The notes under the pieces are model-generated. The model was not told the DNA's origin, ran no database searches, and worked only from the letters and a program-made list of their open reading frames with translations. Both the position numbers and the translations under genes were made by a program. From NCBI RefSeq assembly GCF_004361815.1, contig NZ_SNWA01000004.1:310001-374000 (forward strand): DNA of 64,000 bases, read 5' to 3'. This DNA is from Paraburkholderia sp. BL10I2N1. Lineage in GTDB: Bacteria; Pseudomonadota; Gammaproteobacteria; Burkholderiales; Burkholderiaceae. Within the stretch, counting starts at the first letter, position 1. Every line of letters starts with the position of its first letter. Below, one piece after another: positions 39,085 through 57,409 of the stretch.

Positions 39085-40269
39085 TTAACTGGAAAGAAGG
39101 CGATCCATCTCGCGGATCAGTTGTCCTACGTCGCCCGGTTTAGGCATCCGGAGATGCGCGATATCGTCCCGCACGGGCTTGGCGAGCCTGCAAACCTGCT
39201 CGGCGCAGATTTCGTCCGTCGTGGTTGCCACGAGCTTGCCCAGCTTGCACATGCCGACGATGTTGTTGTACTCGAGCTCGTCCGGATCCATCAGCATGAC
39301 ACGCGTCTGGTCGATGGGGCGCGCAATCTTGCCGTTGTTCAAGGCAGCTTCCCGCTGCAGCTGGCTGCTGAACCGTCGAATGACTGACAGCCGTCGCTCC
39401 TCAAGCCAAGGAGTCAATGTCTTTACGCACGCTCGCCAGTATCGACGTCTGATCCGGTTAAGCGCGTCATCGCGGGCCTCGGGGCGGCCATGCTCTGCCA
39501 TGTAGGCGTCGTTGAGCACGTGGGTTGCCTCTGGTGCTGCATTTGAGCAGGTTCGCATGAGCCAGGACCGGTTGCGCCATCGCGACGGCGTGTCGTTCAT
39601 CAACTGCTGTAGATGAGCGATGATATTGACGATCTGCGGCTCGCTCATCTGCATTATCCGTTCTGCGAGCTCCACATCGAAGCCAGCGAATTCAGCGACG
39701 ATAGCCCGCGACAATCTGGTCGTTCCCGGTCCGGGACGCGACAGCATGCGCAGGGAGACATACGCGTCCATCTCATCGGCTGAGAGACCTCCGTCGAACG
39801 TGATTACCTGAACTCCCCCTTCCCGTTCGTCTCGCGGCAGTGATTCCTCATGCACGCCGAGCACAATGTGAACGTTACCGTCCCCTGTGCCAATGGACCG
39901 AAGAAAAGTGCTCCCGTACCGTTCAATGTTCTCGACTCCGGAAGGTCCGTCAGGCATGAGAATAACGGCGCTGCGACGGTCCGCCTGCAGCAGGATCAGT
40001 TCGGCCGCCGTCACATGCTTGCGGCCGAAATGAACCCCGACGTCCGCCGCGATGTCAGTGCCGCCACTGATTTTGAGCGTAACGATCCGTTCGATATGTC
40101 CATGCCTGAGTCCACGCTGGACCCCCTCCCATGTGCCGGGCAAGGTGTCGATGGGAAGGTTTATCCACAGTAGTCGAGAGCTCGCGGCCGTCTCTTCGAT
40201 GCGCGTGACGAAGTCGCATGGTCCTGGCAGATTCCAGTACAGTTCGGGAACGATAGTTGGCTTGTCCAT
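39085..40269 (-). CDS. Fourth gene of the PIWI-helicase operon, unknown function
   Basis: A 394-residue soluble protein. The first ~150 residues look like an alpha/beta fold (RLLWINLPIDTL, then AVILMPDGPSGV and VHIVLGVHEESLP strands) reminiscent of a P-loop NTPase, but no GxxxxGK[ST] is present; the C-terminal half is helical, basic and Arg-rich. Its ATG lies one base after the stop of the 3160-aa gene, so translation must be coupled. Either a degenerate ATPase partner of the giant protein or a nucleic-acid-binding subunit is plausible. I do not recognise the family. The upstream in-frame extension into the giant gene is not used as the start. Confidence 0.7.
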   Translation of the reverse strand: MDKPTIVPELYWNLPGPCDFVTRIEETAASSRLLWINLPIDTLPGTWEGVQRGLRHGHIERIVTLKISGGTDIAADVGVHFGRKHVTAAELILLQADRRSAVILMPDGPSGVENIERYGSTFLRSIGTGDGNVHIVLGVHEESLPRDEREGGVQVITFDGGLSADEMDAYVSLRMLSRPGPGTTRLSRAIVAEFAGFDVELAERIMQMSEPQIVNIIAHLQQLMNDTPSRWRNRSWLMRTCSNAAPEATHVLNDAYMAEHGRPEARDDALNRIRRRYWRACVKTLTPWLEERRLSVIRRFSSQLQREAALNNGKIARPIDQTRVMLMDPDELEYNNIVGMCKLGKLVATTTDEICAEQVCRLAKPVRDDIAHLRMPKPGDVGQLIREMDRLLSS

Positions 40270-40270
40270 C

Positions 40271-43200
40271 TTATCTGGCAGTGAGAAGCTCGAAGTAGAT
40301 TTCCGGCACAGTCCAGGTGCCACCAGCGCCTTCCTGAAGAATGCCCATCCAGTGGAGGAATTCCATCTCAGCCCGGGCCACGCCGAGCATGTCACGCACA
40401 TCGTCCACTTCTGCCGACAAGCGAGGTGCTCCCTTGATTGTTTCGAGGAAGGAGTTCACAGCTTCGCGTCGCTCTGGCGCGAAAGTCGCCGGGAGATTGA
40501 CGCGGCGGTAGAACTCATCCAGATTTTCTCCAAAGGCCCGCTTCGCGAGATCAGGCGCCCGGAGCGCGTCGTCAACAGTCATGGTCGCGCTGCACACACG
40601 CTGCACTTCCTTATCGAATCCGCACGATGCCCTGATAAGGGCCGATAGCGCATCGGAGTTTTCCGACACCTCGGAGTTTTCCTGCAGACGGAAGTAAACG
40701 GCATCCTCGGTCCACTGGGGCAGCGGGACGACCCGCCAGCCAGCCGCGTCAATTTTCTTCGCCTCGATAGCCTGCGCAAGCTCGAGTGCGCGCTCCGGCA
40801 TCGCGAGCAACGCGAAACGCACGTCGAGGTTCTGCTTCGCGGCCTTCTGGGCAGCCTGCACGAAGCCGGGAATGTGGGCAGTGTTCCAGGCTGCCGGACG
40901 TACTGCCACAATGCGTCTGACCGGGTGCGCTCCTCTGTTTCGACGCAAATTGACCAGATAGTCATTGGCGGAAATCGGGCCAATACCCGGCATCATCGTG
41001 TAGACGCCATCCTGGCCGATCTTCCATTCGTCTCTGCCGGCCGGTTTGTTCAGTTCCACGATCCCGCTCAGTTCATTTCCTGTAAGCACCAGCAGTTCGC
41101 CGTCCGACGAGTCCATGTAACGACGCACCCAGGCGACCGGGAAAGGAAACGGGATACTGCTCGTGCCGTGATCCATGGTGACACGTCTCTCGCCGCGGTT
41201 ACGCGTTTCCTCCGGCGGCTCCTTGGCGAGCTCGTCGAGCTTGTGGGCTACCCGATCGGCATCGCCCATCATCATGGCAATGTTAGGGTTCCGTAGCACA
41301 TAGCGCGTGTTGACCCGCTCCAGCACGTTGAGTTTGATCATTTCCTCAAGCAGGGCCTCGTAGACGCCCGGCCCGGCGTTCGCGAAATGGGTCGGTACAA
41401 GGGTTTCGCAAAGATCGCTGATTTCCGAGATCGTGAGGCCTGCGTATGGGCCCGACGCGCTTTGGGAATAGTAGACATCCGCAAGCAGGAGCGCGATCGC
41501 CTTGTAGCGTTTGTCGAGATTCAGGTTCAGTTCGAACTTGTGGCGCAGTTCACTCAGCAACGAACTGTCATTCTCGACCGCATCCAGATCGTCTGCGCTG
41601 ATATATAGCGGCGGCTTCGCATCCTGACGGCGGTTCATCAGCCGGTCGACAAGGCTCTTGCAGTAAAGCTGGATGAACGCCGGATAAAAGTTGCAAACAG
41701 ACAGGATGCGCAGTGGAAGATCCTCCTCGCTATGCGAAAAAAGGAAACCCATGGCTGCCAGCGGCTTGGTGATGAGACGGATACCACGCTGGATGTCGGA
41801 CGCAGAACTGAACGGTTCCAGTGCGATCGTTTCCGCCTTGCCGAGCACCGAGTTTTCCTCGGAGGTCATCCGCGTCATGTTGTGAAGGCCCGCGATCACG
41901 TAGCGGATGTGGCATGCGTGATGAAGGTTTTCGACCATCTGCTGGAGACTTCGGACAAATCCGACTTCTCCCTTCGCGAGCCGTAACTCCCGCCCCATCA
42001 GTGAGTCGGCTTCATCGATCAGCAGATAGATGGATTTCAGGTCAGTCCTTCCCTGGACCTCTTTCTCGATCCAGTCCCTGATATGCTGCCACTGCGTCGG
42101 TTGCCCCGACATCGGGCCGATGATTTTCCGGGAAAGTAGATTCCGGTACACGAAACTCCATGCAGCATGCACATGACTCGTCGACGAGTCGATCGTATCC
42201 ATCGAGATATACACCGCGGACATGCCGGGCGTACTTTGCGTCTCAAGTTCGACTTGTGCAAGGAGCGAGGACTTCCCGAGGCGACGCCCGCCGTAGAGAA
42301 CGCCCAGACTCTTCACATCGCGAAGCTTGGCGAGCTCGACCTGACGCCCAAAGAACATCTCCGTTGGCACCGGGCGGCCACCGTAGTCGTCGTACGGATT
42401 GGTATTGAAGCTCAGCATGCCGACCCGCATGAGCGCCTGCAGGCGCTCGCCAGGATGCAGCGCGACATATGCCACCAGTTCGTCATCGATCAGCAGCGCC
42501 GGCGCAGCGCCGCATACACGAGCCCGGCGCGTCATGTTCAGACGCGCACGGGCGAGCACGACGGTCGGGGTTCCGCCAATCTCATGCATGAGCTGACGCA
42601 GACCATTTTCGGTCGAGTGACCGAACATCATGAATCCTTGAATGTGCACAGCCCGTGACCCAAGCACGGGCGGTATAAACATCTCGTCGTCAGCCGTCGT
42701 GGGGAACGTGAACGAACGGTCTGGCAGCACGAAGCGCAAGCGGTTTGTGCGGCCGTGCTCCGGAATCGTCGACGGTGTATGGTTGATCCCCAACAGGTGA
42801 AAAACGGTTTCCAGTTGCCTGCTATCGCCGGAGAGCTTCTGGCGTGGGCCTACGAACAGATCGAGCCACGCTCTGACGAGCTTAACCGCCTCATCCCGCT
42901 CGTCGCTGGAAAGCGCCTTCAACCATTCCGGATCGTCTTCGGTAACTGGTTGCTCAAGCGCCGTACACAGTGCGTCCAGCGGCGATTTATTGCTATGGAC
43001 CGACTGATGGACCCGGCTCATGAACTGGTCGTAGTCCAACGCTACATCCGCACGGCCTCCAAGACGAACCGGAAGCTTGTGCGTTGCCTTCAGAAGCGCA
43101 AGTGCATCGTGAGCCGTGCGCAGGCTGGCGGCGTTGTCCGACTGCAGCATGGCGCGAATGCGCTGGATATCCTGGGAAGATGCAAGTCCCCGGTTTGCCT

Positions 43201-46200
43201 CAGCATATCCGTTGAGATCCTCTTCCAGCCGTCTGGCGACTTCGTTCAGTCGCGCTGCCAGCGGCATCAGGACACGATGACGCAACACTGCTGCCGCCTG
43301 AGGAAAGTCCGCATACATAACGCCGTCTGCGGAGGGGTGACCAATGCCCTTCTCCGGGCGTAGGGAGTCCTGCATTGCCTCGATCACACGCTGCATGCTG
43401 TTGGCCTCGTTCTGTGTCAGGGCAGATAGCGTCATCGCATGAGTGACCCGCTGTCGGGCCCTTTGCAGTTCTGCGCTGAAGGCGGTCTTGCGCTGGTTGT
43501 AAAGCCGAAGCACGGGCGCGTCGCCAGCGGTGAGCATGGAGCGCGGGAGGCACGAGTCAATGTGGAAGGCGGGGATGAAGCGCTGCGCCGCAAGGTGTTG
43601 GCGAAGCGCTTCTTTCAACGCCTCATCTATACTGTCGTCGTCTGCCCCGATAGATAGTCCTTCCCCCGCCCATCGCCCGGTTTCTTCAAGGATTGCGGCG
43701 GGTACGCAAAGTGCCGGCGTGTGTTCGTCAACCGGGGCGAGCACGGGCATGAGATCGCGACCGAGCGGCGCCTGAATGAGCAGCTTCTGCTTTTCCTGCG
43801 GGATACACGCGGGGGCCTGATTGTTGTCATAAAGCCGCAATGCGCACTTGATCGCCGAGATAGCTGCATCACGATAGAACGCTTCCAGGTTGCCTCGCGT
43901 TGCAATCGCGGTGATCTCCACCAGCGAGTCCTCAAGATGCCGGTGCAGAGTCGCGAGAAAACTCAGCGTACTTTTAACGAGCTCGACGTTCGGGTTTTCC
44001 TGGCGCCGTGCGTGGTCGAGATAACTCTCAATGAATTTTCTTGTGACTTCGATGTTCTCGATCGCCCGAGACCTGAAAAGGCCATCGGGACGGGTACGTT
44101 CGCCGAGTTTGCGAAAAATTTCATCGACCATCGCCGCAGGCTTATCCATCTTGCGGCGCGCTTCTTCGTAGTGTGCACTCACCTTGTCCGGCGCGCCTTT
44201 GGTAATGCTCTCAAGGCATGAGCCAATCGGACTCCTCGGACTGAACATCTCCTCATGCATCGCCTTGAACCCGCGATGGTTCCAGCTTGAGTAAATCTCG
44301 GGTGCTGTTTTCCAGGTCGTGGCCCGGTGCTGAAAGCGCTGCAGTTCATGCTTCAATGCTTCTTTGTCGCCAATCTGCGAAACGAGGAACATGTCCCGGG
44401 TCAACTGCAGCCCGCGCTGGCGAATCGTGTCAATGTGTTCAATAAGCGCCCTGAGCCGCGGATGACCAGTCAGCGGAGCGCTGATCGCATGGCCGATGTT
44501 CCACTGGATGTCTGAACTGTCAAAAAGCATGCTCGAGAGACCGGCCGCAAGCACGCCAAGCGCGACCGATGCGGAATCGGTGAGGCTGCTGCCTGTCAGC
44601 GACTGCGTGATGAGCATCTCCTTGAGGGCCGGGTCCAGCCGTGTTTCGAACTCGAACTGGCAGTCCATCCTGTACAGAGACTCGACCAGCGCATGCAATA
44701 CGACGTAGTGGGTATTGGTCTCAGTGGGTACCATCTCTCCAAGAACCGGCTTCATTGCCTCCACGTGCACGGTGGCAAGACCATAGAGCCGTCGCCCGAC
44801 AAGACGGTGCAAGACGGCTGAGTGCTTCTCGACGAACTGATGCGCAGTTTCCAGCTCTTCATCGAGGTCGTCCGAAGCCTGATCGGTCGCGGGCACGACG
44901 GTGTCTGGCGCCGTCGAATTGACGCCGAGTTCATGGGCTGCATCGCTGTCTGAGAAGGACTGGCCTGTGTGCTCAGACAAAGACTCACCTGCGGCCGCGC
45001 CATTCTCACTTACAGATGAAAGGCCAACGGCAGTGTCTTCGACAGGAACGTCATTGTCACTCTGCTCTGGCACGGAAATCTCGTGCCGGACTTCCGACTC
45101 TACCAGCATGGTCTCAGCCAGATCGGCGTCACCGTCTCCAGGAAAAACTGGCTCCCTCATATCGACTGCCGGTGCAGGTTCGTAGGTCTCGGGCGACGTC
45201 GGGACCGCGGGCTGAGTCATGATTTGTTCTATCACCGCGGCCGCCTCGCTTACGTCCCCGCCGACGTCGCTCAACGAGTCAATGCCCGTATCTGTTGCCA
45301 TCGTAAAGCAAGGGCTCTGAAGCACAAGCCCCTTCAGCTCCTCGGCGCTCCTCAGCATCGAGTCGACCGTCTCTGACAAAATCCGGTTGCGCTTCTGCCG
45401 CTCCGCGAGTACGGGCGTGGACGGCATGCTCTCGATCTTCTTCATCTGTGAGTCGAGAGCCTCGATGTCGCCGACAAGCACATCGATGCGCGCGATGCTT
45501 TCTTCGGCGACGTCCATGTCCTCCAGGTCCTCGACGCAGCTCACGGCTCCCAACCCGAGCTGCAGTTCGAGCGGCTTTATCTTCGACAGGAGATGCTGGC
45601 TACGCTCAAGCAGCGCCAAATGACGTTGGCGTGCCTGCTGGGCAGCATTTTTTCGTTCGAGCGCCCGGCGGTGCATCAACTCAAGTGTGACGAGAAACTC
45701 ATTGATTTCGGCAACAGATTCCGAAAATTCGGTGGTGCCGGGTTCAAGCTTCTGGACCTGCGTTGCAATTCTTGACCTGATACTCAGGAAAACGGCATCG
45801 TCAGATGAATCGCCGTCTTTGATGGAGGTCTCGGCAGCCTCTGTATTGGCGTGCGCCATCTGTATCTCCCGTAGCTGCGGTGTTGCAGAATCTGCGTGTT
45901 CAAATGAGTCGGTCTGCCCGGCATCTGCCAGTGACTCGCGCGGGACGGCATCTGCCGGCGTGCTTGCGGCTAGCGAATCCTCGTTGGTGTTCACAGACAC
46001 CCTGCCCTCGGTGGCGGCGAGGCTGTCAACTACTGCCTGCATCTCAGGTTTGGGGCGACGCCTGAGGATGGTCTGAAACTTGTTGAGATGGTCGCACTGC
46101 GCAATGGCATCGTTGACCGCGGACGCGACGTCGAGGTAATACTTCAGCGCCTCCTCGGTCAATGGTCCGGGAATATCAGTGATATTTCCGATTACGGCAT

Positions 46201-49200
46201 CGCGCCAGTCACCGATGGGGTATTGGGCCACCAGGAAAATCAGCCAGCCCATCAGCTCATCATGACGTGTCTGCTGTGCCCATCCGGCTAACTGCTCGAG
46301 CACTGCCGGCTTGAGCGAGTGGCCCAAAAACTGTTCTTCGGTCGGTCGACCCGGGTTATATGCAGTATTGATGAGTTCGTGCAGACGCCTGAACGACAGC
46401 CCTCCAATGAGATCTGAGGCTGGCGCAAGTGCCATGGCTGACTGCGGCACCTGGAGCAGCGCCCCCATCCAGTCGAGCAGTTCACTTTCACGAGGCATGG
46501 GCGCACGCTCCCTGACCACGCCCATGTCGCGTAAAGCCTTCCAGTAAGAAGCGGCCTTTCTGCGAACCGTCGTGTTGAACTCGCCGAATATGCCTTTGGT
46601 TTTTATCCAGTATGGCAACTCGACACGAACGCGCACCCCGGCATCCTGGTACATCATGCGTTGTCCGAGCCGGCGGACTCTCAGATCGCGTGAACCGTGC
46701 AACGTCGGCATCGGCGTCAGCTTGACGCGTGTCAGGAGATCGGTCTCATCGCTCGCGGTCGCTGCCCGGTTGACCTCGGGCAGTTCGACCTCATCCTGCG
46801 CTGTCAGACTGTCAGTTTTCGCTGAATTTTCAATGAGGCGCGAGACGTACGTCCGTGCACCCGGCGACTCATTCTTCTCTTCCGCTGCATCGCCGCCATC
46901 AGGCGGTGTTGCCTCATTCGACGGCGGTGGATCGTCATCCTCATCCTCAGGAAAGCGGATCACATAGTCTTCGATCTTGCGGCGGAAGAACAGCGGCGCA
47001 GGTAGCGTTGTCCAGTCATCATAGTGGGCGTAGCCGATGCGAAGTCCCATCACCAGCATGGCGACATTCCGGGCCATCACGCCTTGGGGCGCACGCAGTA
47101 CGGTAATTTCCATACTTGCGGGCAACGACGCATCCCATGCTGCAGGATCCATCATTTTCTGCGCGTATTCCTTCGCTCCCTTCCCGATCTGTTGCATGCG
47201 CGGAGTCGCGCGGTAGCAGGAAAGGCCGCGTTTTACCTGCACGGTCTTGGCATAGCCCATCGTCGCCATGAAATGACCATAGCCGCGTTCGATGGCCGGA
47301 CCGTCTTCTGACAATTCAACGAGCGATTTGCCGGTGCTGTAATAGGCATCGATGAACGTTTCGCCCGAATGGGTGCGCTCGTCACTGCTTAGCCACCCTT
47401 CGTAGGTGACCTTCACCTCCGAGCGCAACGACAGTGTGTCCGCACCACGACGCAGCCGCACGAAGCTCATGTCCTTGAAATGTGCGAGATCAGCGCTTCC
47501 TAGCTTTACCGTACCGCCCGTTGTCAGATCGGTGTCGCGGATTCCGCGCCACAGACCTGCCACGCTCTGCCAGTCGATCAGCACCACAGCACACGGATCG
47601 GTCTCGTGGATGGAAAGCAGCGTTTCCCTGATCGCATCCTCGAAGATGCTTTTCAGCCACCGGTCATCTCCTGCGTGCATCTGCCGCTGACTGCCTAGCC
47701 ACTGCAGGCCCGCCGACAGCGGTTTCCATTCGGATCGTTGCGTACCCTTGCCTCCCTTGTAGATAAACTGCACCTCAGTGACACCGGTCTCGATCACGAG
47801 GCGCGTGTTTAGCAGGAAGGTGAAGCCGGTCTCTCCGCTGCCGAATCTGGCGCGGGAGCGTATGGCCTGCAGACCGTAGATACACCGAGGCATATGCTCC
47901 GGCGACAATAGTTGGGCCGCGAATTCGCGGGTGCCGAAAATGATCCCCGAGTGCGCGAGGAAGACGTCCAGGAGCGCGCTTTGGGTACGGTGCAGGAATG
48001 CCTGTTCGGCGGCCGGATCATCAGGCGCCTCGATAGGCAAAAGGTGGTGAACGTTCGCACCGATCGACGACATCGCGTGGATGCCAGCGTAATAATTGAC
48101 ACCGTCCTCGTTGCGCTGCCTGTACTTGTCTGGCGCGCAGATCAGCGCGATTACGGGTCGCGTGCCGCTGACCTGCCTGATCGTCGTCGTCGCCAACTGC
48201 CAGCGTTTGACGCGCTCGTCGAAACGCCCACGCGCATTCAGGTTTACGCCGTCCAGATCAGCGCGCAAACCGTGGGTACCAGCGGGCAGCGCCTCAAGCT
48301 TTATTTCTACGGCGTCACCAAAAAGCGTTTGAACTGAGTTGGCAATGATTTCCTGCTCGCGTGCGAGGTCGCACAATACCCACAATATCGGCTTGTTATC
48401 ACCGTGAGAGAGCTTCAGCGCCCGTATGTTCTGTTCACGGTAGTCTGCGATCGAAGTGATGCGCTCGGTAGTACCTTCATCGCCCGACTCATCGTCGTCT
48501 ACATCGACTTCTTCCGCATCAGAGCCGGACACGAGCGAATCACCGGCGGCACCGAATTCGAGGTCTGTCAGACGCAACATTTCCTGCAAGGGGCGCTTTT
48601 TCCGATTGATTGCGATTTCGCGCAAGCCGATCGGACGCGAGGCGAGTGCGTAGCCGACGATTTCGCTAACAGTCTCCAGTAGTCGCGCTTCGTCGCCCTC
48701 GAAGACCGTCCGGGGAGAAACAAACTTGAAGAGCGTCGGCAATTCGGGGAGCCCTGCCCACCAGCCGGTGCGCTCGTCGAACTCCCTTCGACGCACTGCC
48801 TCCTCAAGCGTATCGGGAAGCGCGGAACGTGACTCGATCTGCGCCGCCGCGTAACCTTCGCCGAACTCCCAGCCCGTTTTTGCACGCTCCACCGGTATCA
48901 TGACGGCGGGTCGTCCGGGGGCCAGCACGTATCCCGTGACACGCCTTGGCATCTTGCCATGGGCAAACGGCACCTTTTTCGCCCACACTCTTTTCATTGC
49001 CGAGACGCCCAGGAAAAGGTCGCGGCTGTATGGCATGGTGCTGACCGTCAGTCGTGCTACCATCGAGAAGACATCGTCACCCCGGGTTGCGCGTTGCGGC
49101 ATTGACATCAGTTCGATCGCGTTGGATCGGCTCTCCGGACTGGCCACCAGTTCACATGCACCTAGCCCTTCGAAGAGTTCTTCGCCCATCAGGCTGCCAC

Positions 49201-49753
49201 CGATGATGCGCACGATGAGCGGAAAATCGGGCTGCCCGTCACTTTCGCGGATCAGGGGGGCCTCGATTTCGGTGGGCACAATCAGTTCCGACCGGATGGT
49301 GGCTTTCATACGGGACGCAAGGCCGCCCATCTTGTGCCGCTCCGCCCAGGGCTCGACCTCGTTCATGAGCCACCGGCTGAGATAGCGTGCGATGCGCTCG
49401 CGCGTGGCGCTGTAGTTTCCGTCCTCACTGAGGTCTGGAAGCATCACGATCGCGCTGCCACGTCTGCCGTTTGCGTCGGGGAGCAGACCGAGGTCACGGT
49501 CAAGACGCACTATCTTGTCTAGCCCCGCCGTGAGAGCCGTGCGAAGCGACGTCACTGGCAGGTTCTTTTTCTCCTGCTTTGCGGACGCCAAGATCGCCGA
49601 AAAGCTGTTAAAGAGCTCACCGGAGAAGGAGAACTCGACCAGCGAAACTGCCTGCTTTAACCATTCGGGCGAAATCTTGCGACCGATAAGCATCGGCGCA
49701 CGCACGGTATGACCGCCTACGCGGGTCCATGTGATTGTTTTCTCTTCAGACAT
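40271..49753 (-). CDS. Giant pPIWI-RE-like protein fused to coiled coil and P-loop ATPase
   Basis: A single uninterrupted frame of 3160 residues. Residues 1 to ~930 resemble pPIWI-RE prokaryotic PIWI proteins: an N-terminal X-type region, a MID-like segment after an acidic linker (~410-440), and an RNase-H-like PIWI region with CAVVLIDWQSVAGLW near 715-730 and the late GLSCYRATPRMQQIGK block near 848. Then come an unassigned basic region (~980-1320), a coiled coil (~1325-1490), an acidic disordered stretch, a long helical region, and a P-loop ATPase with Walker A GVLYGGRRLGKSSLL near 2485 and Walker B IYLLIDEAD near 2577, followed by a probable winged helix and a C-terminal domain of ~300 residues. 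It overlaps the helicase gene by eight bases. Typical pPIWI-RE proteins are roughly 900-1000 residues, so the fusion is exceptional. PIWI assignment is recognition, not a search result. Confidence 0.75.
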   Translation of the reverse strand: MSEEKTITWTRVGGHTVRAPMLIGRKISPEWLKQAVSLVEFSFSGELFNSFSAILASAKQEKKNLPVTSLRTALTAGLDKIVRLDRDLGLLPDANGRRGSAIVMLPDLSEDGNYSATRERIARYLSRWLMNEVEPWAERHKMGGLASRMKATIRSELIVPTEIEAPLIRESDGQPDFPLIVRIIGGSLMGEELFEGLGACELVASPESRSNAIELMSMPQRATRGDDVFSMVARLTVSTMPYSRDLFLGVSAMKRVWAKKVPFAHGKMPRRVTGYVLAPGRPAVMIPVERAKTGWEFGEGYAAAQIESRSALPDTLEEAVRRREFDERTGWWAGLPELPTLFKFVSPRTVFEGDEARLLETVSEIVGYALASRPIGLREIAINRKKRPLQEMLRLTDLEFGAAGDSLVSGSDAEEVDVDDDESGDEGTTERITSIADYREQNIRALKLSHGDNKPILWVLCDLAREQEIIANSVQTLFGDAVEIKLEALPAGTHGLRADLDGVNLNARGRFDERVKRWQLATTTIRQVSGTRPVIALICAPDKYRQRNEDGVNYYAGIHAMSSIGANVHHLLPIEAPDDPAAEQAFLHRTQSALLDVFLAHSGIIFGTREFAAQLLSPEHMPRCIYGLQAIRSRARFGSGETGFTFLLNTRLVIETGVTEVQFIYKGGKGTQRSEWKPLSAGLQWLGSQRQMHAGDDRWLKSIFEDAIRETLLSIHETDPCAVVLIDWQSVAGLWRGIRDTDLTTGGTVKLGSADLAHFKDMSFVRLRRGADTLSLRSEVKVTYEGWLSSDERTHSGETFIDAYYSTGKSLVELSEDGPAIERGYGHFMATMGYAKTVQVKRGLSCYRATPRMQQIGKGAKEYAQKMMDPAAWDASLPASMEITVLRAPQGVMARNVAMLVMGLRIGYAHYDDWTTLPAPLFFRRKIEDYVIRFPEDEDDDPPPSNEATPPDGGDAAEEKNESPGARTYVSRLIENSAKTDSLTAQDEVELPEVNRAATASDETDLLTRVKLTPMPTLHGSRDLRVRRLGQRMMYQDAGVRVRVELPYWIKTKGIFGEFNTTVRRKAASYWKALRDMGVVRERAPMPRESELLDWMGALLQVPQSAMALAPASDLIGGLSFRRLHELINTAYNPGRPTEEQFLGHSLKPAVLEQLAGWAQQTRHDELMGWLIFLVAQYPIGDWRDAVIGNITDIPGPLTEEALKYYLDVASAVNDAIAQCDHLNKFQTILRRRPKPEMQAVVDSLAATEGRVSVNTNEDSLAASTPADAVPRESLADAGQTDSFEHADSATPQLREIQMAHANTEAAETSIKDGDSSDDAVFLSIRSRIATQVQKLEPGTTEFSESVAEINEFLVTLELMHRRALERKNAAQQARQRHLALLERSQHLLSKIKPLELQLGLGAVSCVEDLEDMDVAEESIARIDVLVGDIEALDSQMKKIESMPSTPVLAERQKRNRILSETVDSMLRSAEELKGLVLQSPCFTMATDTGIDSLSDVGGDVSEAAAVIEQIMTQPAVPTSPETYEPAPAVDMREPVFPGDGDADLAETMLVESEVRHEISVPEQSDNDVPVEDTAVGLSSVSENGAAAGESLSEHTGQSFSDSDAAHELGVNSTAPDTVVPATDQASDDLDEELETAHQFVEKHSAVLHRLVGRRLYGLATVHVEAMKPVLGEMVPTETNTHYVVLHALVESLYRMDCQFEFETRLDPALKEMLITQSLTGSSLTDSASVALGVLAAGLSSMLFDSSDIQWNIGHAISAPLTGHPRLRALIEHIDTIRQRGLQLTRDMFLVSQIGDKEALKHELQRFQHRATTWKTAPEIYSSWNHRGFKAMHEEMFSPRSPIGSCLESITKGAPDKVSAHYEEARRKMDKPAAMVDEIFRKLGERTRPDGLFRSRAIENIEVTRKFIESYLDHARRQENPNVELVKSTLSFLATLHRHLEDSLVEITAIATRGNLEAFYRDAAISAIKCALRLYDNNQAPACIPQEKQKLLIQAPLGRDLMPVLAPVDEHTPALCVPAAILEETGRWAGEGLSIGADDDSIDEALKEALRQHLAAQRFIPAFHIDSCLPRSMLTAGDAPVLRLYNQRKTAFSAELQRARQRVTHAMTLSALTQNEANSMQRVIEAMQDSLRPEKGIGHPSADGVMYADFPQAAAVLRHRVLMPLAARLNEVARRLEEDLNGYAEANRGLASSQDIQRIRAMLQSDNAASLRTAHDALALLKATHKLPVRLGGRADVALDYDQFMSRVHQSVHSNKSPLDALCTALEQPVTEDDPEWLKALSSDERDEAVKLVRAWLDLFVGPRQKLSGDSRQLETVFHLLGINHTPSTIPEHGRTNRLRFVLPDRSFTFPTTADDEMFIPPVLGSRAVHIQGFMMFGHSTENGLRQLMHEIGGTPTVVLARARLNMTRRARVCGAAPALLIDDELVAYVALHPGERLQALMRVGMLSFNTNPYDDYGGRPVPTEMFFGRQVELAKLRDVKSLGVLYGGRRLGKSSLLAQVELETQSTPGMSAVYISMDTIDSSTSHVHAAWSFVYRNLLSRKIIGPMSGQPTQWQHIRDWIEKEVQGRTDLKSIYLLIDEADSLMGRELRLAKGEVGFVRSLQQMVENLHHACHIRYVIAGLHNMTRMTSEENSVLGKAETIALEPFSSASDIQRGIRLITKPLAAMGFLFSHSEEDLPLRILSVCNFYPAFIQLYCKSLVDRLMNRRQDAKPPLYISADDLDAVENDSSLLSELRHKFELNLNLDKRYKAIALLLADVYYSQSASGPYAGLTISEISDLCETLVPTHFANAGPGVYEALLEEMIKLNVLERVNTRYVLRNPNIAMMMGDADRVAHKLDELAKEPPEETRNRGERRVTMDHGTSSIPFPFPVAWVRRYMDSSDGELLVLTGNELSGIVELNKPAGRDEWKIGQDGVYTMMPGIGPISANDYLVNLRRNRGAHPVRRIVAVRPAAWNTAHIPGFVQAAQKAAKQNLDVRFALLAMPERALELAQAIEAKKIDAAGWRVVPLPQWTEDAVYFRLQENSEVSENSDALSALIRASCGFDKEVQRVCSATMTVDDALRAPDLAKRAFGENLDEFYRRVNLPATFAPERREAVNSFLETIKGAPRLSAEVDDVRDMLGVARAEMEFLHWMGILQEGAGGTWTVPEIYFELLTAR

Positions 49754-52700
49754 GCTGTCGGTCGTTCAGTAGGTTTTCAATTGCGCCCATGGGCACGGAG
49801 AAAGACTGGTAAAGATTCTGGTAGCTCTCGCGCACGGCTGGATCGTGGTGCGCGAGACACTTTGCGAGGATCGTCTGCATCATCACAAGCATCGAGGTTC
49901 GGTCGTTGTCGGGCATTCCCCTGGCAGAATTGGGCGCCCAGGCAGCATCCACGAAGTACACGAAGGCCGGGCAATCACCGCGCATCGCCCTCCCGATTGT
50001 CTGCAGGATCATGATCATCTGGTCCGCCACAAATGGCTCCGCATACTCCCCTAATCTTTGCGCAACAAGTTGCATGCGCAGCAGATATTCAATGGTTGAG
50101 GACGTCCTGCGCCTCGCCTCGCGTAGCGCTCCCAGCGCCTCCTGCGTGGTGGCAAACTTGCGACGGTCGAACGTTTCCGAAGCCCTTCCGACGAGCCCCT
50201 GGATCAACTGCAGGCTGTCGCCGCGGGGGTGTGGCCGGGTAAGGAAAAAGAGTGACCCGATCATCGCCTTGTCGATCCGCGGGCCAAAGCGGTACACGAT
50301 GTTCACGCCTCGGCCGATCGCGCTCATCGGGAAGATCAGCAGATCCCAGTTTTCGTCTTCGCCCAGACTTTCGACCTCTGAAGCGGTGACGGCCGCATCG
50401 TGAAGCGACCCGTGAATCTTCGGTTGCACGAGGTAGCGTACACGGCCGCGCCAGGATGGATGATTGGCGTAAATGTGGTCAAAGAGCTGCTCGCACTGTT
50501 CGTACGAGTTGACGACAAAGGCCGCCTTGCGCCCCGCTCCGTCCACGACATCGTTGTTCAGAATCGCCTGCTCGACGTCGGAAAGTACGCCATGACGCAG
50601 CAGCTGATCGACGATCGTTCTGAGGATGCGCTCCCTCTGCAGCAGTTTCGCGCCGCTGAAGCGCAACGGCATCTGCGTCTGCGGATCGAGCTTCGGGAGG
50701 AAGCAGTACCTCGATTTCTCCCACCCGCTACCGGCGTTTGGACGGCGCAGAACGTAATGAGGTCCGACGCCAATGTGAAAGCTCGGGCTTTGCTCAAGCA
50801 GGGAGGTCGCACTCGTCATGAGTACGGCCATGCCCTCGCCCCGCTCCTTTCCGATCTCGATCATGCGCTGAGGGAGCAGGCGTGGGGTTCCGGCAAATCC
50901 CACGTGAGAAACGTCCACATTACCTTCCTCGCTGACGGTGTAGCGTATTCCGCTAAGGCGACCGATCAGTGATTCGGGCAGAACGCCGAGCTGGTCTCGC
51001 GAACAACGCGTCTCGAAGACGTTGTCGCTTACCAGCCCCATCGTGTTCATCAGGCGCAGGTGGGGAGCAAGACCAAAGTGCTGAAGGACGAGCAGCGTAA
51101 CCGAGACGAGAAGCGTCGTATAACAGTAGAAGGTTTCATCATCGTGGCTGGTCGGCAGGCCGGGTACCGTGCGCAGCACTTTCGCAATGGCGTGGACGGC
51201 AGCCTCGTTGCCGTCGCGCTCCCACACTTCGATAGCATGAAGCAACCGGTCGTACAGGTCCCGGACCGCTTCGGTGCTCTGACTGGTAGCCTTTGCGGCT
51301 TCATCAAGCGTGCGGGCTAGGTCACTCATACCCTCATCTTCATCACCGTGAAGCGGTGTATGGCGAAATGCCACAACCTTGACGGCCGCATCGAATACAC
51401 CTTCAAACGCCCGCCGTGCCTCCACGAACAAATCCCTTCTCGCGTCATCCCACTCGTCGTCAACCGCAAACATGTCCGAGATGATCGACAGCGACGTCAG
51501 CAGTACATTCGCATGGGCCTTGCGAAAAGCAGGAGGGAGATGCAGCAGATGGGACACAAGTCTTTCCGTGGCACGTCCGAAGCGACCGGTCATCTCCAGC
51601 AGGGAAGGCACAGTAACGCCGGCCACGAACGCATTGTTTCCACGCGCAGCGGGATCGTGCAGGTCGCGGATCAACGTACTCCAGAGCGAATCGTAGTCGC
51701 CTGACAGTTTAAGCATAGGTGTGCCGCGCCCGTCCAGATTGGTCTGGGCGCCGTCGCACTCGTCGACGACGAGTACATCAAAGGTCCGCGCCAGATACTC
51801 GAAGTGTCTGACTTCCGCATCGGTATAAAGTGGCGACACGCGGCGGTCCGTCGAGAGGATGTGACCGGCCCAGATCGTTGCGCTGCCGAGCATCCGCTCA
51901 CCGTGCTGCAAGCCACACACGGATGAGAGCGCGCATCGGTGCCGACGCGCACGCTTTCCTGTCTCCGGACGTTGCATCACCTGGAGGCACGGCGGGTTTG
52001 TGTGTGGAAATTCGACGTCTTCGTCGCTGGCAAAGCCCGCAAGGGCGCAGTTTGTCGCGAAGAACGGCGCGATCTCGCGCGTGACTCCATAACCGTGGTT
52101 CTGGTTCGCCAGTGCGGTTGCAAAGTTGAGCACGTGTTTGGTACGTGCTGTCTCGCTTTGCCCCGAAAGAAGTCCAGCTGGTACTTCGTAGCGGGCCAGC
52201 GTCTCGATGAAGCCGCTCGCCACTTCGATAGAAGGGAAGAGGAAGCAGACCGAATAGCCCTGTGCTGACAGGTATCCTGCCAGCAAATGCAGGAGCGTGG
52301 TCTTTCCAGCGCCGGGAAGACCAATCAGATGCTTCAGTCCCGTTAGGTCAATAGCCTCGGCGAACACCAGTCCGTCGCTGCCTCGCTCCATGAGCACTGC
52401 CGTTGGGTTTCCCTGGGCATCGTGCAGCCGGTTAAACCAGCGGCTTTCCGAAGGCTGCTGACGCCCGGCCGTGACGTCGATGTCATCGAAACGTCGCGCA
52501 ATCGCGATGAGGTCTTCCCAGCGTACCAGGCCCGGAGCCGTGCCGACGCGCTCCAGGTCGTACATTGGAGGTGCGGGAGGTGTAAATCCAAGCGGAGCGA
52601 TGAGACCAGAATAGCCCTGATCGGCGTCGACCTCTGCGCGCCTGTCGGCAGCATGAACGGGAGGAAGTGCCCGAAGACGCAACGGCCTGATGGAGGTCAG

Positions 52701-53090
52701 GCACGCCAGTGCGATCGTAATGTCTTCGGGAACGAGATGCGTCCAGGTTCGACTGATATTGAGGTTCTCATCGATCCGATATCGCTGCGGCAGTTCGTCT
52801 CGGACAGTTTCGTCGCCCCGGGACTTGCGCAGTTCGACCTGGCGGTAATGCTGCCGGTAGGCGTCTGACATCAGCTGTAGTTCGCTCAGCGTGCCCGGCG
52901 CGATTCCAGCGAGCCGGATATTTCGCAGAGCGAGCGCAACGTCCTCATTGAGCGTGTTTGTTACGCTCTCAAACCCCGCGGCGAGAGCTGGCATTGTTGC
53001 CAGACTGCTTTGCTTCAGAAGTTCGGAGGCGATGATGCACAGATAGTTAAGGCGGCTGACTCCGCTGAACGGCTGCAGGGGCTCACGCAT
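49746..53090 (-). CDS. DinG/XPD-type superfamily 2 helicase of the pPIWI-RE operon
   Basis: A 1114-residue helicase. Walker A GLPGAGKTTLL lies near 257, a cysteine cluster (CLQVMQR, then HRCALSSVC near 385-400) fits an iron-sulfur domain of the DinG/XPD type, motif II is VVDECD near 441, and motif VI is QTIGRAMRGD near 1030. The N-terminal ~230 residues are extra and may be the Z domain of pPIWI-RE helicases. It would unwind DNA or R-loops for the PIWI and nuclease partners. The ATG at 53090, inside the nuclease stop region, has AAGGA seven bases upstream; a longer start at 53129 lacks one. Eight-base overlaps tie it to both neighbours. Confidence 0.82.
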   Translation of the reverse strand: MREPLQPFSGVSRLNYLCIIASELLKQSSLATMPALAAGFESVTNTLNEDVALALRNIRLAGIAPGTLSELQLMSDAYRQHYRQVELRKSRGDETVRDELPQRYRIDENLNISRTWTHLVPEDITIALACLTSIRPLRLRALPPVHAADRRAEVDADQGYSGLIAPLGFTPPAPPMYDLERVGTAPGLVRWEDLIAIARRFDDIDVTAGRQQPSESRWFNRLHDAQGNPTAVLMERGSDGLVFAEAIDLTGLKHLIGLPGAGKTTLLHLLAGYLSAQGYSVCFLFPSIEVASGFIETLARYEVPAGLLSGQSETARTKHVLNFATALANQNHGYGVTREIAPFFATNCALAGFASDEDVEFPHTNPPCLQVMQRPETGKRARRHRCALSSVCGLQHGERMLGSATIWAGHILSTDRRVSPLYTDAEVRHFEYLARTFDVLVVDECDGAQTNLDGRGTPMLKLSGDYDSLWSTLIRDLHDPAARGNNAFVAGVTVPSLLEMTGRFGRATERLVSHLLHLPPAFRKAHANVLLTSLSIISDMFAVDDEWDDARRDLFVEARRAFEGVFDAAVKVVAFRHTPLHGDEDEGMSDLARTLDEAAKATSQSTEAVRDLYDRLLHAIEVWERDGNEAAVHAIAKVLRTVPGLPTSHDDETFYCYTTLLVSVTLLVLQHFGLAPHLRLMNTMGLVSDNVFETRCSRDQLGVLPESLIGRLSGIRYTVSEEGNVDVSHVGFAGTPRLLPQRMIEIGKERGEGMAVLMTSATSLLEQSPSFHIGVGPHYVLRRPNAGSGWEKSRYCFLPKLDPQTQMPLRFSGAKLLQRERILRTIVDQLLRHGVLSDVEQAILNNDVVDGAGRKAAFVVNSYEQCEQLFDHIYANHPSWRGRVRYLVQPKIHGSLHDAAVTASEVESLGEDENWDLLIFPMSAIGRGVNIVYRFGPRIDKAMIGSLFFLTRPHPRGDSLQLIQGLVGRASETFDRRKFATTQEALGALREARRRTSSTIEYLLRMQLVAQRLGEYAEPFVADQMIMILQTIGRAMRGDCPAFVYFVDAAWAPNSARGMPDNDRTSMLVMMQTILAKCLAHHDPAVRESYQNLYQSFSVPMGAIENLLNDRQHV

Positions 53091-54279
53091 AACCCGATTC
53101 CTTTGAGCCGAGCCTGGCAAGCGCCTCACTGACGGTCAGGCAGGTGACGTCATCCCGGCCCATGGTCCGAGTGAGCCGGTACAGATACGAGGGCACTGAT
53201 GCGACGTGCCAGTCCGGTATCACAAGCAGGCGCTGCGCGTAGTAAGCGAGGCCGCCGATGCTGCGCTTGAACTTCTGGCCGAGAGTCTCCGGGCTGACGT
53301 AGGTTTTGAGGTCGATGCCTGTATCGCCCACTGCGATGTCGACTCGATCGCGAAACGGATAAAGTTCGGCTGGTGTGCCGCTCGCACGGAGCGCGTCATA
53401 AAGGCGAAGTTCGTCGATTCCCGGTTCGACCCAGTATTGCCGGATACCGCGTGCGACACGCATCACGGAACTGGCGGCGACGGATCGCGATGACCGCGCG
53501 GGATAGGTGGCAACGCACGCGGCTGTACGGCAGACGAGCCCTGCTCGCCCCTTCTTCATTGCGTTTCCGCAGTGATCACAAATGGGAACCGTCCCGTCGA
53601 CACACCACCCTGTTGGCACAGCCTCGTAAAATTCCCGCTGGATAATCAGCCACACACGGGCCGGCACCTCCTCCGTCAATCCGAGCTTGAAGTCGTCAAG
53701 ATTGCACACAGGATTGCGAACGACGAAGTCACGCACCTTCGTGTAGTAGGCGTTGGCCTGCCCTTCGGGATGACGGCTGAGGACATCCATGAACCTGGCG
53801 AATAGCTGTTCTTCGATCGCAGCCGTCATGCCGGTGAACCCTGCGGCCAGTTCCTCGGCCTCTGCTGTCGGAATGCCGTCGTCCGCGTGAATCAGCACCG
53901 TGTGATTGAGTCCGGCGTGCACGACCTCGGGAAGCGTCAACCATTCGCCCAATGGACGGGTGCACAGCGCCAGAAGATCATGGATTTCTGCGCCATGGTC
54001 GGGAAGACCCTGGATAAGGCAGGCTCTCGAGATGGCACCCATTGCCCGGCGGTCATCGGGCCCCAGGCCGACCGGCGATCCATGCGTGCGGCTGGTCCCG
54101 GAGACCATTTTCCCTTCGAAAAGGGACATTCTCGCCAAGCGGATGACTAGCGCGGCCAGGCTGGCGATCAACCGGTCGTTGTTCGTCGATTCATGAAAGC
54201 CTGACTCATCGCCGTGTTCTGTTGCACCAGCATGCATTGCCTGCCGCATTTCTGCGGCACTCTCGGAGACATCGCGCAT
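53083..54279 (-). CDS. Zinc-ribbon/PD-(D/E)xK nuclease of the pPIWI-RE operon
   Basis: A 398-residue protein, first gene of the four-gene operon. The N-terminal ~200 residues are helical and match my memory of the pPIWI-RE Y region. A zinc ribbon CDHCGNAMKKGRAGLVCRTAAC follows at about 234-254, then a restriction-endonuclease-like core with YPFRDRVDIAVGDTGIDLKTY at about 305-327, where the spaced Asp and the DLK act as the PD-(D/E)xK set, and a helix with QKFKRSIGGLAYYAQ. It probably cleaves DNA exposed by the helicase. The ATG at 54279 has a weak AGAGAA upstream. Confidence 0.75.
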   Translation of the reverse strand: MRDVSESAAEMRQAMHAGATEHGDESGFHESTNNDRLIASLAALVIRLARMSLFEGKMVSGTSRTHGSPVGLGPDDRRAMGAISRACLIQGLPDHGAEIHDLLALCTRPLGEWLTLPEVVHAGLNHTVLIHADDGIPTAEAEELAAGFTGMTAAIEEQLFARFMDVLSRHPEGQANAYYTKVRDFVVRNPVCNLDDFKLGLTEEVPARVWLIIQREFYEAVPTGWCVDGTVPICDHCGNAMKKGRAGLVCRTAACVATYPARSSRSVAASSVMRVARGIRQYWVEPGIDELRLYDALRASGTPAELYPFRDRVDIAVGDTGIDLKTYVSPETLGQKFKRSIGGLAYYAQRLLVIPDWHVASVPSYLYRLTRTMGRDDVTCLTVSEALARLGSKESGYA

Positions 54280-54953: not shown

Positions 54954-55919
54954 ATGCCCCGCCCGGCCGCCGTTACCCCCGAACAGATCCGTTCCGCCGT
55001 GCTGTCGATGCTCGCCGAGGCCGGCGATGCAGCACCGCCCACTGGCGAACGCTTCCGCAAGGTCGTGTCGGTACGGAAACTCCGCGCGCGGCTCGGTGCG
55101 GGCGATCCGGCTACCCTTGCGCGGGCACTCAACGCCGTCGAGGCCGAGGTCGTGCGCGCGGGACTCGCCGACATCGCGATGCCCGGCATTCCCGTCGAAA
55201 TCGCCGAGCAGATGCGCGCGCTGTGGCAAGCGGCCGTGGCCGTGCAACTTGAGGACGTGGTGCGCCTGAAGGTAGATGCACAACAGGCGATTGCGGCGGC
55301 CGATGCGGCGCGCACCGATGCCGAACTGCGCGTCGAACTGCTGCGCCAGGAATTGAGCGAGCTGCGAGCGGGGGTCTCCTCACGCGACATCGAACTGTCC
55401 GATCTGCGGGCCCAGAACGCGATGCTGCGCGAGCGGTGCGCGGCGCTCGATGCGGCAGCCCAGGAACGCCAGGCGCAACTCCACGCCGCGACAGCGGAGC
55501 GGGCGGCGGTTGAGCGCACGCACGCGGGCGCACTGGCGGACGTGCAACATCGGTACGAGGCGCTGTCGAAACAGTTGCTGCAGGAAACTGCCCACCAGCG
55601 CGAGGCCCTGAAAAAAGAGCATGCGCACTCCACGGCGCAACTCAAGTTCGCCGAGCGCCGTGTTGCCACGCTTGACGGCGAACGCGAACGGCTCGAAGGC
55701 GAACTCGCGAGCGAGCGCGAAGCCCGCCAGCAGGCGGTCGGCGAAGCGCTGGCGCTCAAGGCGATCAACGCGAGCCAGTATGCGCAGCTCGACGAACTGC
55801 TGCGCCTCGTGTCGGCACAGGAGGCCCGTCGCGCACCGGTGGCGTCCAGCCGTCTCGCGACCGCGAGGCGCACCACCGGCACTTCGAAGAGCGGCACGAC
55901 TAAGCCCAGGAAGACATGA
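54954..55919 (+). CDS. KfrA-like DNA-binding coiled-coil protein
   Basis: A 321-residue protein. An N-terminal helix-turn-helix region (about 1-110, with PAAVTPEQIRSAVLSMLAEA and KLRARLGAGDPATLARALNA) resembles plasmid KfrA. A long Glu/Arg/Ala coiled coil (about 115-280) and a basic Ser/Thr/Lys tail follow. Such proteins bind repeats, dimerise through the coil and help plasmid segregation or act as accessory factors for recombinases (TnpT of Tn4651-type transposons is one example). AGGAG precedes the ATG. The stop overlaps the recombinase start, so the two work together. It is likely autoregulated at the AT-rich region upstream. Confidence 0.8.
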   Translation: MPRPAAVTPEQIRSAVLSMLAEAGDAAPPTGERFRKVVSVRKLRARLGAGDPATLARALNAVEAEVVRAGLADIAMPGIPVEIAEQMRALWQAAVAVQLEDVVRLKVDAQQAIAAADAARTDAELRVELLRQELSELRAGVSSRDIELSDLRAQNAMLRERCAALDAAAQERQAQLHAATAERAAVERTHAGALADVQHRYEALSKQLLQETAHQREALKKEHAHSTAQLKFAERRVATLDGERERLEGELASEREARQQAVGEALALKAINASQYAQLDELLRLVSAQEARRAPVASSRLATARRTTGTSKSGTTKPRKT

Positions 55920-57409
55920 GCGAAACAACGAGCCCCGCCGACTGGATCGATGGCGGCATGACGCCACCGCGGCGGCTGCCGGCGGACACCAACGCGGCGC
56001 TCGCGTATCTGGCCGACACGCTCGGCCACGTCGTCTACACGCGCTGGACCCTGGCGGCGATCAAGGGCCGGTACGCCTCGCTCGCCGACGCGAAGGTGGC
56101 CCATCCCGCGGTCATGCGGCAGTTGCTTGATCACGCGGTCGTGATCGAGTACTGGGATCGCGGCCGTGTGCGCACCGCGGCCATCGACGATGCGCCGACA
56201 CCGGAGGCGGTGCTGCAACGCGTTCTGCATACGCAGCGGCGGCGCTTCAAGGTCTCGCCCGAAGCCGGGTTGCCGGCGGCGACCGGTGAGCCGATACGGG
56301 ATACGACAGCGCTGGTCACGGTGCCGCAACCATTGATCGCGTGGCTTGCCCGGGCTGGACGCTTCGCGAATGTGGCGAGCGCAACCAACACGCTCGGCGT
56401 GGGCGACGACGCGCAGGCTGTCGCGCTCTTCCTGCGCGATCGCGCGAGCCGCTCGCCGCATACGCTGCGTGCATACCGGACCGAACTGCGGCGGCTGGTC
56501 ACGTGGTGCGAAGCGCAGCAACTCGGTCCGCTGTCGGATCTCACGCGCCACGACCTGCTCGCGTACCGGCAGGCATTGCGCAAGCCCTCTCATGACGTCG
56601 TCGACGACAACAACCGGACGGTGGCGGAAGCGACCCAGGCACGGGCACTCGCGGTCGTCGCGAGCCTGTTCCGCTACTGGACCGAGACCGGCTATCTGAC
56701 CGCCAATCCGGCTGCAGGGCTCGTCCGTGGCGGACGCTCGCGCACGAGCTTCGCACCGCAACGGATGCTGCCGAGCGCGTTGCTTGCCGCATGTGACACG
56801 TGGGTCGCTGAAAGTTTCAACGACGACGACGCGCTGGTCGTCGCGCGGCGCCGCGCAATCTGGGCGCTATACCGGTACACCGGCGTGCGCCTGGTTGAAC
56901 TCGTGTGGTCCGACGACGCGCAGTTGCCGAAACTCGAGGTCGACCGCATCAACGGCATCGAGTGCTGGACGCTGCACGTGCTCGGCAAGGGTCGCAAGAC
57001 GCGAGCGGTTCCGTTGCCGGGACTCTGCGTTCCGATCCTGAGAACGTACCGGCAACTGCGCGGCCTGCCGCCGCAGCCCAGTCTCTATGAGCATGCGGCA
57101 CTGATTCACGGACTTAAGGGCGGCTCGCTGCACAGCTCCGGCCTCTACGATGAGGTGAAGGCAATCTTCATCGCGACGGCCGACCGCATCGAGAAAACCG
57201 ATCATGCGGGCGCTGCGCGCCTGCGATCGGCATCACCGCACTGGCTGCGCCACGGCTATGCCAGGCAACTCGTGGTGGACCATCAGGTGCCATTGCCGGC
57301 CGCACAGGCTCTGCTCGGGCACGCGTCAGTGCAAACGACCGCGATCTACGCAAAAACCGACTTGTCGCAGTTGCGCGCCTTTGTGGACCAGACGTTCAGC
57401 GACAGTTGA
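55916..57409 (+). CDS. Tyrosine recombinase (large XerC/D-like site-specific integrase)
   Basis: A 497-residue phage-integrase-family recombinase with the full catalytic set: Arg325 in YRYTGVRLVEL, Lys in GKGRKTRAVPL, His442/Arg445 in HWLRHGY, His469 in LLGHASVQTT and nucleophile Tyr478 in IYAKTDL. The ~150-residue N-terminal extension before the SAM-like core domain is unusual and may contact the KfrA-like partner, whose gene it overlaps by four bases. It could resolve cointegrates or dimers, or mobilise the adjacent island. It is divergent from the PIWI operon. Confidence 0.87.
   Translation: MSETTSPADWIDGGMTPPRRLPADTNAALAYLADTLGHVVYTRWTLAAIKGRYASLADAKVAHPAVMRQLLDHAVVIEYWDRGRVRTAAIDDAPTPEAVLQRVLHTQRRRFKVSPEAGLPAATGEPIRDTTALVTVPQPLIAWLARAGRFANVASATNTLGVGDDAQAVALFLRDRASRSPHTLRAYRTELRRLVTWCEAQQLGPLSDLTRHDLLAYRQALRKPSHDVVDDNNRTVAEATQARALAVVASLFRYWTETGYLTANPAAGLVRGGRSRTSFAPQRMLPSALLAACDTWVAESFNDDDALVVARRRAIWALYRYTGVRLVELVWSDDAQLPKLEVDRINGIECWTLHVLGKGRKTRAVPLPGLCVPILRTYRQLRGLPPQPSLYEHAALIHGLKGGSLHSSGLYDEVKAIFIATADRIEKTDHAGAARLRSASPHWLRHGYARQLVVDHQVPLPAAQALLGHASVQTTAIYAKTDLSQLRAFVDQTFSDS

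What the first reader, a model, noticed from the sequence alone, without database searches (positions are those of the whole stretch)
39085..54279. Expanded pPIWI-RE conflict system: nuclease, DinG helicase, giant PIWI-ATPase and an unknown fourth gene
Four minus-strand genes overlap by eight bases or sit one base apart, so they form one translationally coupled unit. The first three match the published pPIWI-RE three-gene island (PIWI, DinG-type helicase, restriction-type nuclease), a predicted but little-studied defence or plasmid-control system. Here it is enlarged by a 3160-aa PIWI fusion and a fourth cistron. I consider this the best candidate for a new system in the window.
Basis: partly seen in the sequence, partly recalled or inferred. 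Interest (0 to 1): 0.95.

Follow-up and report, generated by a model that had tools for sequence, protein, structure and literature searches.

The report
PIWI–NLR fusion with RNase partner
Four coupled bacterial genes encode a predicted DNA nuclease, a DinG-type helicase, a giant protein that joins an Argonaute-like PIWI module to an ATPase predicted to resemble plant and animal immune switches, and a protein with the sequence motif of RNA-cutting HEPN enzymes; the set likely senses invading DNA and would then shut the cell down, which would tie guide-based recognition directly to a suicide switch.

Summary
Four minus-strand genes (39085-54279) are coupled (two 8-base overlaps, then one base between); genes 1-3 match the pPIWI-RE island (REase, DinG helicase, PIWI-RE). 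New here: (1) residues ~2450-2850 of the 3160-aa PIWI protein are a predicted STAND/NLR-like ATPase with conserved Walker A and B. (2) The unknown fourth gene is a P-loop-less AAA/STAND-like fold plus a C-terminal helical domain with an invariant R-x4-H (89 of 89 aligned), related at profile level to Swt1-type HEPN RNases. (3) The order REase-DinG-[PIWI::ATPase]-gene 4 recurs in 14 of 14 other PIWI-fused loci with upstream sequence; five plain triads lack both additions. (4) The ATPase-gene 4 pair also lives without PIWI, REase or DinG nearby (6 loci), so it is a separable module; PIWI-fused ATPases are not one clade. (5) In cyanobacteria the same ATPase is fused to sigma-70 instead. Best reading: a nucleic-acid-triggered NLR-like switch that would fire a HEPN RNase. 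The architecture is solid; defence function, RNase activity and trigger are untested. I found no description of the four-gene form in the open-access searches or PADLOC. New variant of a known kind.

The parts
53083..54279 (-). Gene 1: REase (398 aa): pPIWI_RE_Y 77-192, four-cysteine zinc ribbon C234 C237 C250 C255, PD-(D/E)xK-type nuclease core E290...D311...D323-x-K325
   Evidence: Pfam PF18154, PF18156, PADLOC PprRE 1.6e-44; the named residues identical in 15 of 15 aligned loci (window plus 14)
49746..53090 (-). Gene 2: DinG-type helicase (about 1114 aa from the ATG at 53090; ORF open to GTG 53129): Walker A GLPGxGKxT, DExD box, cysteines C361 C381 C399 C405 (numbered from the GTG)
   Evidence: PADLOC PprDinG 9.9e-158; these residues identical in 15 of 15
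40271..49753 (-). Gene 3: giant PIWI::ATPase fusion, 3160 aa
   Evidence: of the 120 proteins listed out of 206 found (window protein included) 116 carry the PIWI-RE part and 110 are 3000-3420 aa
46958..49588 (-). PIWI-RE module of gene 3 (X 56-315, MID 475-607, RNaseH/PIWI 626-932)
   Evidence: Pfam above cut-offs; none of the 115 giants with residues 644-652 filled (of 120) has an Asp there, so probably not a nuclease (inference)
41216..42400 (-). Predicted STAND/NLR-like ATPase of gene 3 (residues about 2452-2846), Walker A GGRRLGKSS (2488-2496), Walker B LLIDEAD (2577-2583)
39085..40269 (-). Gene 4: 394-aa protein, AAA/STAND-like fold without P-loop (about 1-260) plus HEPN-like helical domain (263-394)
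39154..39171 (-). HEPN motif R367-D-D-I-A-H372 of gene 4
   Evidence: R and H in 89 of 89, D (88) or N (1) after R; R-x4-H in 23 of 23 loci with a gene-4 profile hit
53083..53090 (-). 8-base overlap REase stop / DinG ATG
49746..49753 (-). 8-base overlap DinG stop / giant ATG
40270..40270 (-). single base between giant stop and gene-4 ATG

Best explanation
This is a conserved four-gene operon in which an Argonaute-like PIWI-RE module is fused to a predicted STAND (NLR-like) ATPase and followed by a gene whose product carries an invariant HEPN RNase motif; it likely works as a nucleic-acid-triggered switch, in which the PIWI part would recognise invading DNA or RNA-DNA hybrids and the ATPase would then activate the HEPN protein as an RNA-cutting effector. 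Shown by sequence: gene order and coupling, the PIWI-RE, REase and DinG domains, the conserved residues, and that the ATPase-gene 4 pair is a separable module. Predicted by models or profiles: the STAND fold, the AAA-like fold and the HEPN domain of gene 4. Inferred: the PIWI part binds a guide but does not cut (first catalytic Asp absent); DinG and the REase unwind and cut the DNA that is recognised; ATP-driven assembly of the giant passes the signal to gene 4 through their similar AAA/STAND folds; gene 4 cuts cellular or invader RNA and stops growth.
Confidence: 0.5

Rival explanations
1. DNA restriction first: as in the 2013 model, PIWI-RE finds R-loops and DinG plus REase destroy the invading DNA; the STAND ATPase and gene 4 only regulate or license that cut.
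For: REase zinc ribbon and nuclease residues and DinG motifs are invariant in 15 of 15; plain triads exist without the additions in the five plasmid loci looked at; model of Burroughs 2013 (PMC3702460, section 6 read).
Against: The ATPase-gene 4 pair exists without PIWI in six loci, with no REase or DinG hit in the stretches held, so it has a role of its own; R-x4-H is kept in all of them.
Confidence: 0.22
2. Guide maker: the HEPN protein cuts RNA into guides for the PIWI part rather than acting as a toxin.
For: HEPN RNases appear to leave 2'-3' cyclic ends (passage, PMC3710099); the one tested PIWI-RE can use 5'-OH RNA guides (section read, PMC10991935); in Azospirillum, Bradyrhizobium and Microvirga PIWI loci gene 4 is fused to a P-loop kinase-type domain AAA_33, which could finish RNA 5' ends (inference).
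Against: Gene 4, and a form with a weak AAA_33 match (E 0.00054, below cut-off), occurs with PIWI-less ATPases (Agrobacterium L032), where there is no guide to make.
Confidence: 0.15
3. Gene 4 is an RNA-binding or regulatory subunit without RNase activity, and the giant is a plasmid- or replication-control machine.
For: Some HEPN domains are non-catalytic (passage); a PIWI-RE knock-out in P. stutzeri was more sensitive to ciprofloxacin, read by its authors as a replication role (passages including abstract).
Against: The catalytic R and H are invariant in 89 of 89; distribution is patchy (0 of 143 other genus genomes; 0 of 368 other class genomes), as for conflict systems.
Confidence: 0.1

Closest known systems
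pPIWI-RE three-gene island (Burroughs, Iyer, Aravind 2013; PMC3702460)
   Same: REase (Y, zinc ribbon, nuclease), DinG helicase and PIWI-RE in the same strict order with overlapping or close ends
   Different: There the PIWI gene closes a triad; here it carries some 2200 more residues with a predicted STAND ATPase, and a fourth gene follows
STAND/NLR NTPases (RPP1, CED-4) and archaeal ATPases 2qen/2fna
   Same: ATPase core with the followers of that fold in the model, invariant Walker motifs
   Different: Sensor part is a PIWI-RE module (or sigma-70 in cyanobacterial kin), fused at the N-terminus; the supposed effector is a separate gene
Swt1-type HEPN proteins, including the AAA+-HEPN fusion Ava_2192 (PMC3710099, passages)
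   Same: R-x4-H HEPN joined to an AAA-type fold
   Different: AAA-like fold of gene 4 lacks a P-loop and precedes the HEPN domain; encoded behind a giant ATPase
PsPIWI-RE of Pseudomonas stutzeri (PMC10991935)
   Same: PIWI-RE family member next to a DinG gene
   Different: It is an active RNA-guided DNA nuclease with two essential Asp; the giant seems to lack the first
DinG-like protein of Caldilinea with a C-terminal Argonaute-like RNase H domain (PMC11981726, passage)
   Same: Couples a DinG helicase with a PIWI/Argonaute-type fold
   Different: One fused protein; no REase, STAND ATPase or HEPN gene is mentioned in the passage

Membership tests
pPIWI-RE three-gene island | PIWI protein with X, MID and RNaseH_pPIWI_RE domains | tested here: met
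   Pfam hits above cut-offs at 56-315, 475-607, 626-932
pPIWI-RE three-gene island | Order REase - DinG - PIWI with overlapping or close ends | tested here: met
   window; order in 14 of 14 other PIWI-fused loci with upstream sequence
pPIWI-RE three-gene island | Island of three genes with a PIWI protein that is not part of a giant fusion | tested here: not met
   PIWI fused to the ATPase part and gene 4 next in 15 of 15 other PIWI-fused loci (PIWI split off in one, L004); five plain triads lack ATPase and gene 4
pPIWI-RE three-gene island | Absolutely conserved R and E residues | tested here: inconclusive
   R766 and R768 in 115 of 115 filled rows, but the published positions could not be mapped without the reference sequences
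STAND NTPase | Walker A and Walker B | tested here: met
   RRLGK 120 of 120; D-E 119 of 120
STAND NTPase | NTPase core with the followers seen in NLR/CED-4 | tested here: inconclusive
STAND NTPase | Ligand-induced oligomer | not testable with these tools
   -
HEPN superfamily | R-x4-6-H with a polar residue after R | tested here: met
   89 of 89
HEPN superfamily | Four-helix bundle with the motif at the end of helix 3 | tested here: inconclusive
   AF2 helices 263-309, 334-342, 351-371, 378-393 with the motif at 367-372 fit, but the fold search did not cover this domain
HEPN superfamily | Profile similarity to a recognised HEPN family | tested here: met
   hhalign with Swt1 67-83%, E 5e-5 to 9e-6 for the distant gene-4 set; weak (2%) for the PIWI-linked set alone
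HEPN superfamily | RNase activity | not testable with these tools
   -
Anti-phage defence system | Protects against phage or plasmid | not testable with these tools
   -

The most novel reading that the evidence does not exclude
A guide-programmed NLR: a bacterial immune machine in which a catalytically dead Argonaute-type PIWI module is the ligand sensor of an NLR-like STAND switch that fires a HEPN RNase, and one branch of a plug-in family whose ATPase chassis takes different nucleic-acid readers (PIWI-RE in proteobacteria, sigma-70 in cyanobacteria, none recognised elsewhere) and different effectors (AAA-HEPN, AAA-HEPN-kinase, DrmE-like, PLD-SNF2 helicase).
Probability: 0.4. Interest if true: 0.93.

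Novelty: new variant of a known kind. Interest (0 to 1): 0.82.

Why it matters
Argonaute-type recognition and NLR-type switching are two great logics of intracellular immunity and are normally separate. A single protein that holds both would show how a guide-target match can be turned directly into an all-or-nothing cell decision. The swap of the N-terminal reader on one ATPase chassis makes that idea testable by domain deletion in harmless soil bacteria, gives this branch of the pPIWI-RE islands a likely effector, and points to a large STAND-like family (1490 proteins found in a capped search) that carries no name in the libraries used here.

Tried and rejected
Chance neighbour or frameshift artefact for the giant: rejected; 116 of the 120 listed homologues (206 found) carry PIWI-RE and the ATPase in one protein. 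Gene 4 as a window-only oddity: rejected, 104 homologues. Gene 4 as an active ATPase: unlikely, no GxxxxGK[ST] in 89 of 89. Pfam, NCBIfam and PADLOC on gene 4: nothing at E 0.001. PDB sequence search on gene 4: two chance-level rows; on the giant the STAND-type sensor PH0952 at 0.0027 over 35 residues and two chance rows. Foldseek/VIA for gene 4 filled with the AAA half, so nothing is said on the HEPN half; no HEPN chain is listed there. No match to gene 4 in plasmids by tblastn, to the ATPase in phages or to the PIWI part in E. coli genomes by megablast. Integrase/KfrA pair as a conserved companion: 1 of the 33 ATPase loci has a related integrase, none a related KfrA. EVE/DCD and Koonin papers: the passages found name no PIWI-RE system. 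First HEPN profile run had minus-strand rows of the reference families read on the wrong strand (80%); repeated correctly (67%) and without L025 (83%).

Full report
WHAT IS THERE. The pPIWI-RE profiles hit the first 932 residues of the giant, and Y/REase profiles hit gene 1; PADLOC's PprRE, PprDinG and PprPIWI models hit genes 1-3. In 15 aligned loci (window plus 14) the REase zinc-ribbon cysteines and nuclease residues and the DinG GLPGxGKxT, DExD and four cysteine positions are identical. The likely start of gene 4 is the ATG at 40269, near which most aligned homologues begin, not the ORF start at 40401.

THE PIWI PART. Of 120 aligned giants, 115 have residues 644-652, the segment I take for the first RNase H strand; none has an Asp there. 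D727 is D in 99, E in 11, Q in 3, N in 2 and a gap in 5. I infer that this PIWI binds but does not cut. The strand assignment is mine, by alignment with five plain triads, which lack the Asp in that stretch as well; the tested nuclease PsPIWI-RE (D525 and D610 essential) was not available to align.

NEIGHBOURHOOD SURVEY. The genome scan gave 15 loci; with the viral-contig hit and 17 plasmid stretches there are 33 loci with the ATPase. The plasmid hits that I fetched are a part of those listed: 7 of 24 records and 10 of 27, near-duplicates mostly left out. 15 loci are PIWI-fused (in Azospirillum the PIWI ORF is split from the rest); 15 of 15 have a gene-4 relative next. 14 of them have REase and DinG in order and direction; in the fifteenth (L003) the contig ends upstream. 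Two more (L016, L017) are cut within the giant and have gene 4. Six have ATPase and gene 4 but no PIWI: Thiodictyon, Salinibacter, Bradyrhizobium hereditatis, Agrobacterium, Streptomyces fungicidicus, Methylocystis; no PIWI-less locus has a REase or DinG hit in the stretch held. All 23 gene-4 relatives keep R-x4-H. Ten ATPase loci have no gene-4 profile hit; one (L025, Bacillota) has a 439-aa next gene with RNQAAH, two (Burkholderia arboris, Cupriavidus oxalaticus X32) have a DrmE_C protein next, and Brasilonema has a PLD-SNF2 helicase next. Of 15 plasmid records with the PIWI part, 8 are not fused to the ATPase by my reading of the hits; I looked at 5 of the 8, and all 5 have REase and DinG but neither ATPase nor gene 4 within 9 kb.

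EVOLUTION. On a tree of 31 ATPase domains (L016 and L017 left out, PIWI state unknown; L010 left out, split) PIWI fusion needs three changes and 0 of 200 bootstrap trees make it one group; holding the 16 fused rows together is rejected (p-AU 1e-13). Either PIWI was gained more than once or lost more than once. A search from the PIWI-less Salinibacter ATPase gave 1490 relatives (7988 candidates scored); of the 120 listed, 56 match a sigma-70 N-terminus and none the PIWI profile; the Brasilonema plasmid copy has four sigma-70 regions by Pfam, the only one of ten PIWI-less N-termini scanned that does. So one ATPase chassis carries different nucleic-acid readers. PIWI-RE is rare: own genome only, among 144 genomes of the genus and among 369 of the class.

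HOW IT LIKELY WORKS. Inferred chain: PIWI-RE, perhaps with DinG, meets a guide-target hybrid or R-loop of incoming DNA; REase cuts that DNA; the STAND part exchanges nucleotide and assembles; gene 4, whose P-loop-less AAA-like fold resembles the ATPase's own, is recruited and its HEPN domain cuts RNA, stopping the cell. The link from ATPase to gene 4 is supported by their pairing without PIWI; the trigger is the published model for plain triads (PMC3702460, section 6 read); effector activity is predicted from invariant residues. A guide-maker role for gene 4 is less likely because the pair occurs where there is no PIWI.

NOVELTY. Searches for pPIWI-RE, PIWI-RE with DinG, REase, Argonaute, HEPN, STAND and the Pfam names brought up the 2013 three-gene description and the P. 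stutzeri study; no listed title or abstract start names the fusion or the fourth gene, and most listed papers were not opened. The library holds open-licence papers only and no preprints. I read section 6 of PMC3702460, one section and passages of PMC10991935, and passages of PMC3710099, PMC11981726, PMC7641849 and PMC5303251. PADLOC 2023 has models for the three known genes and none that hits gene 4.

Noticed in passing
P0238-P0346; L006:10156-17361: In cyanobacteria the same STAND-like ATPase is fused to a sigma-70 factor (56 of 120 listed relatives match a sigma-70 N-terminus); on the Brasilonema plasmid it is followed by a PLD-SNF2 helicase.
   Followed up: partly
L119:12995-17860 (Planktothrix plasmid): A sigma-70 factor related to that fusion, annotated at 519 aa, is preceded by a DNA methyltransferase gene and two hypothetical genes and followed at once by an SNF2-related gene.
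   Followed up: no
L039:15409-18177, L040:15433-18234: ATPase followed by a protein with the DISARM DrmE C-terminal domain instead of gene 4.
   Followed up: no
L004:17502-19175, L009:17248-18897, L033:16018-17634, L032:15925-17514: Alphaproteobacterial gene-4 relatives carry an extra C-terminal P-loop domain (AAA_33; below cut-off in L032).
   Followed up: partly
L024:7109-19070 (Bradyrhizobium hereditatis): WYL regulator, PIWI-less ATPase and gene 4, then an RNase_H_2/PD-DExK nuclease and an SF1-type helicase in the same direction.
   Followed up: no
window 54954-57409, + strand: A KfrA_N DNA-binding protein and a tyrosine recombinase start next to the operon's 5' end, divergently; only L012 of 33 loci has a related integrase.
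   Followed up: partly
L003 (IMG/VR contig): A contig filed as viral carries the giant and gene 4; its ATPase lies next to that of L022 on very short branches. It may be bacterial DNA or a provirus edge.
   Followed up: no
L117:8869-10473 (Hymenobacter plasmid): PIWI-RE gene is only 534 aa, separated by two small genes from the DinG gene, and followed by another helicase.
   Followed up: no
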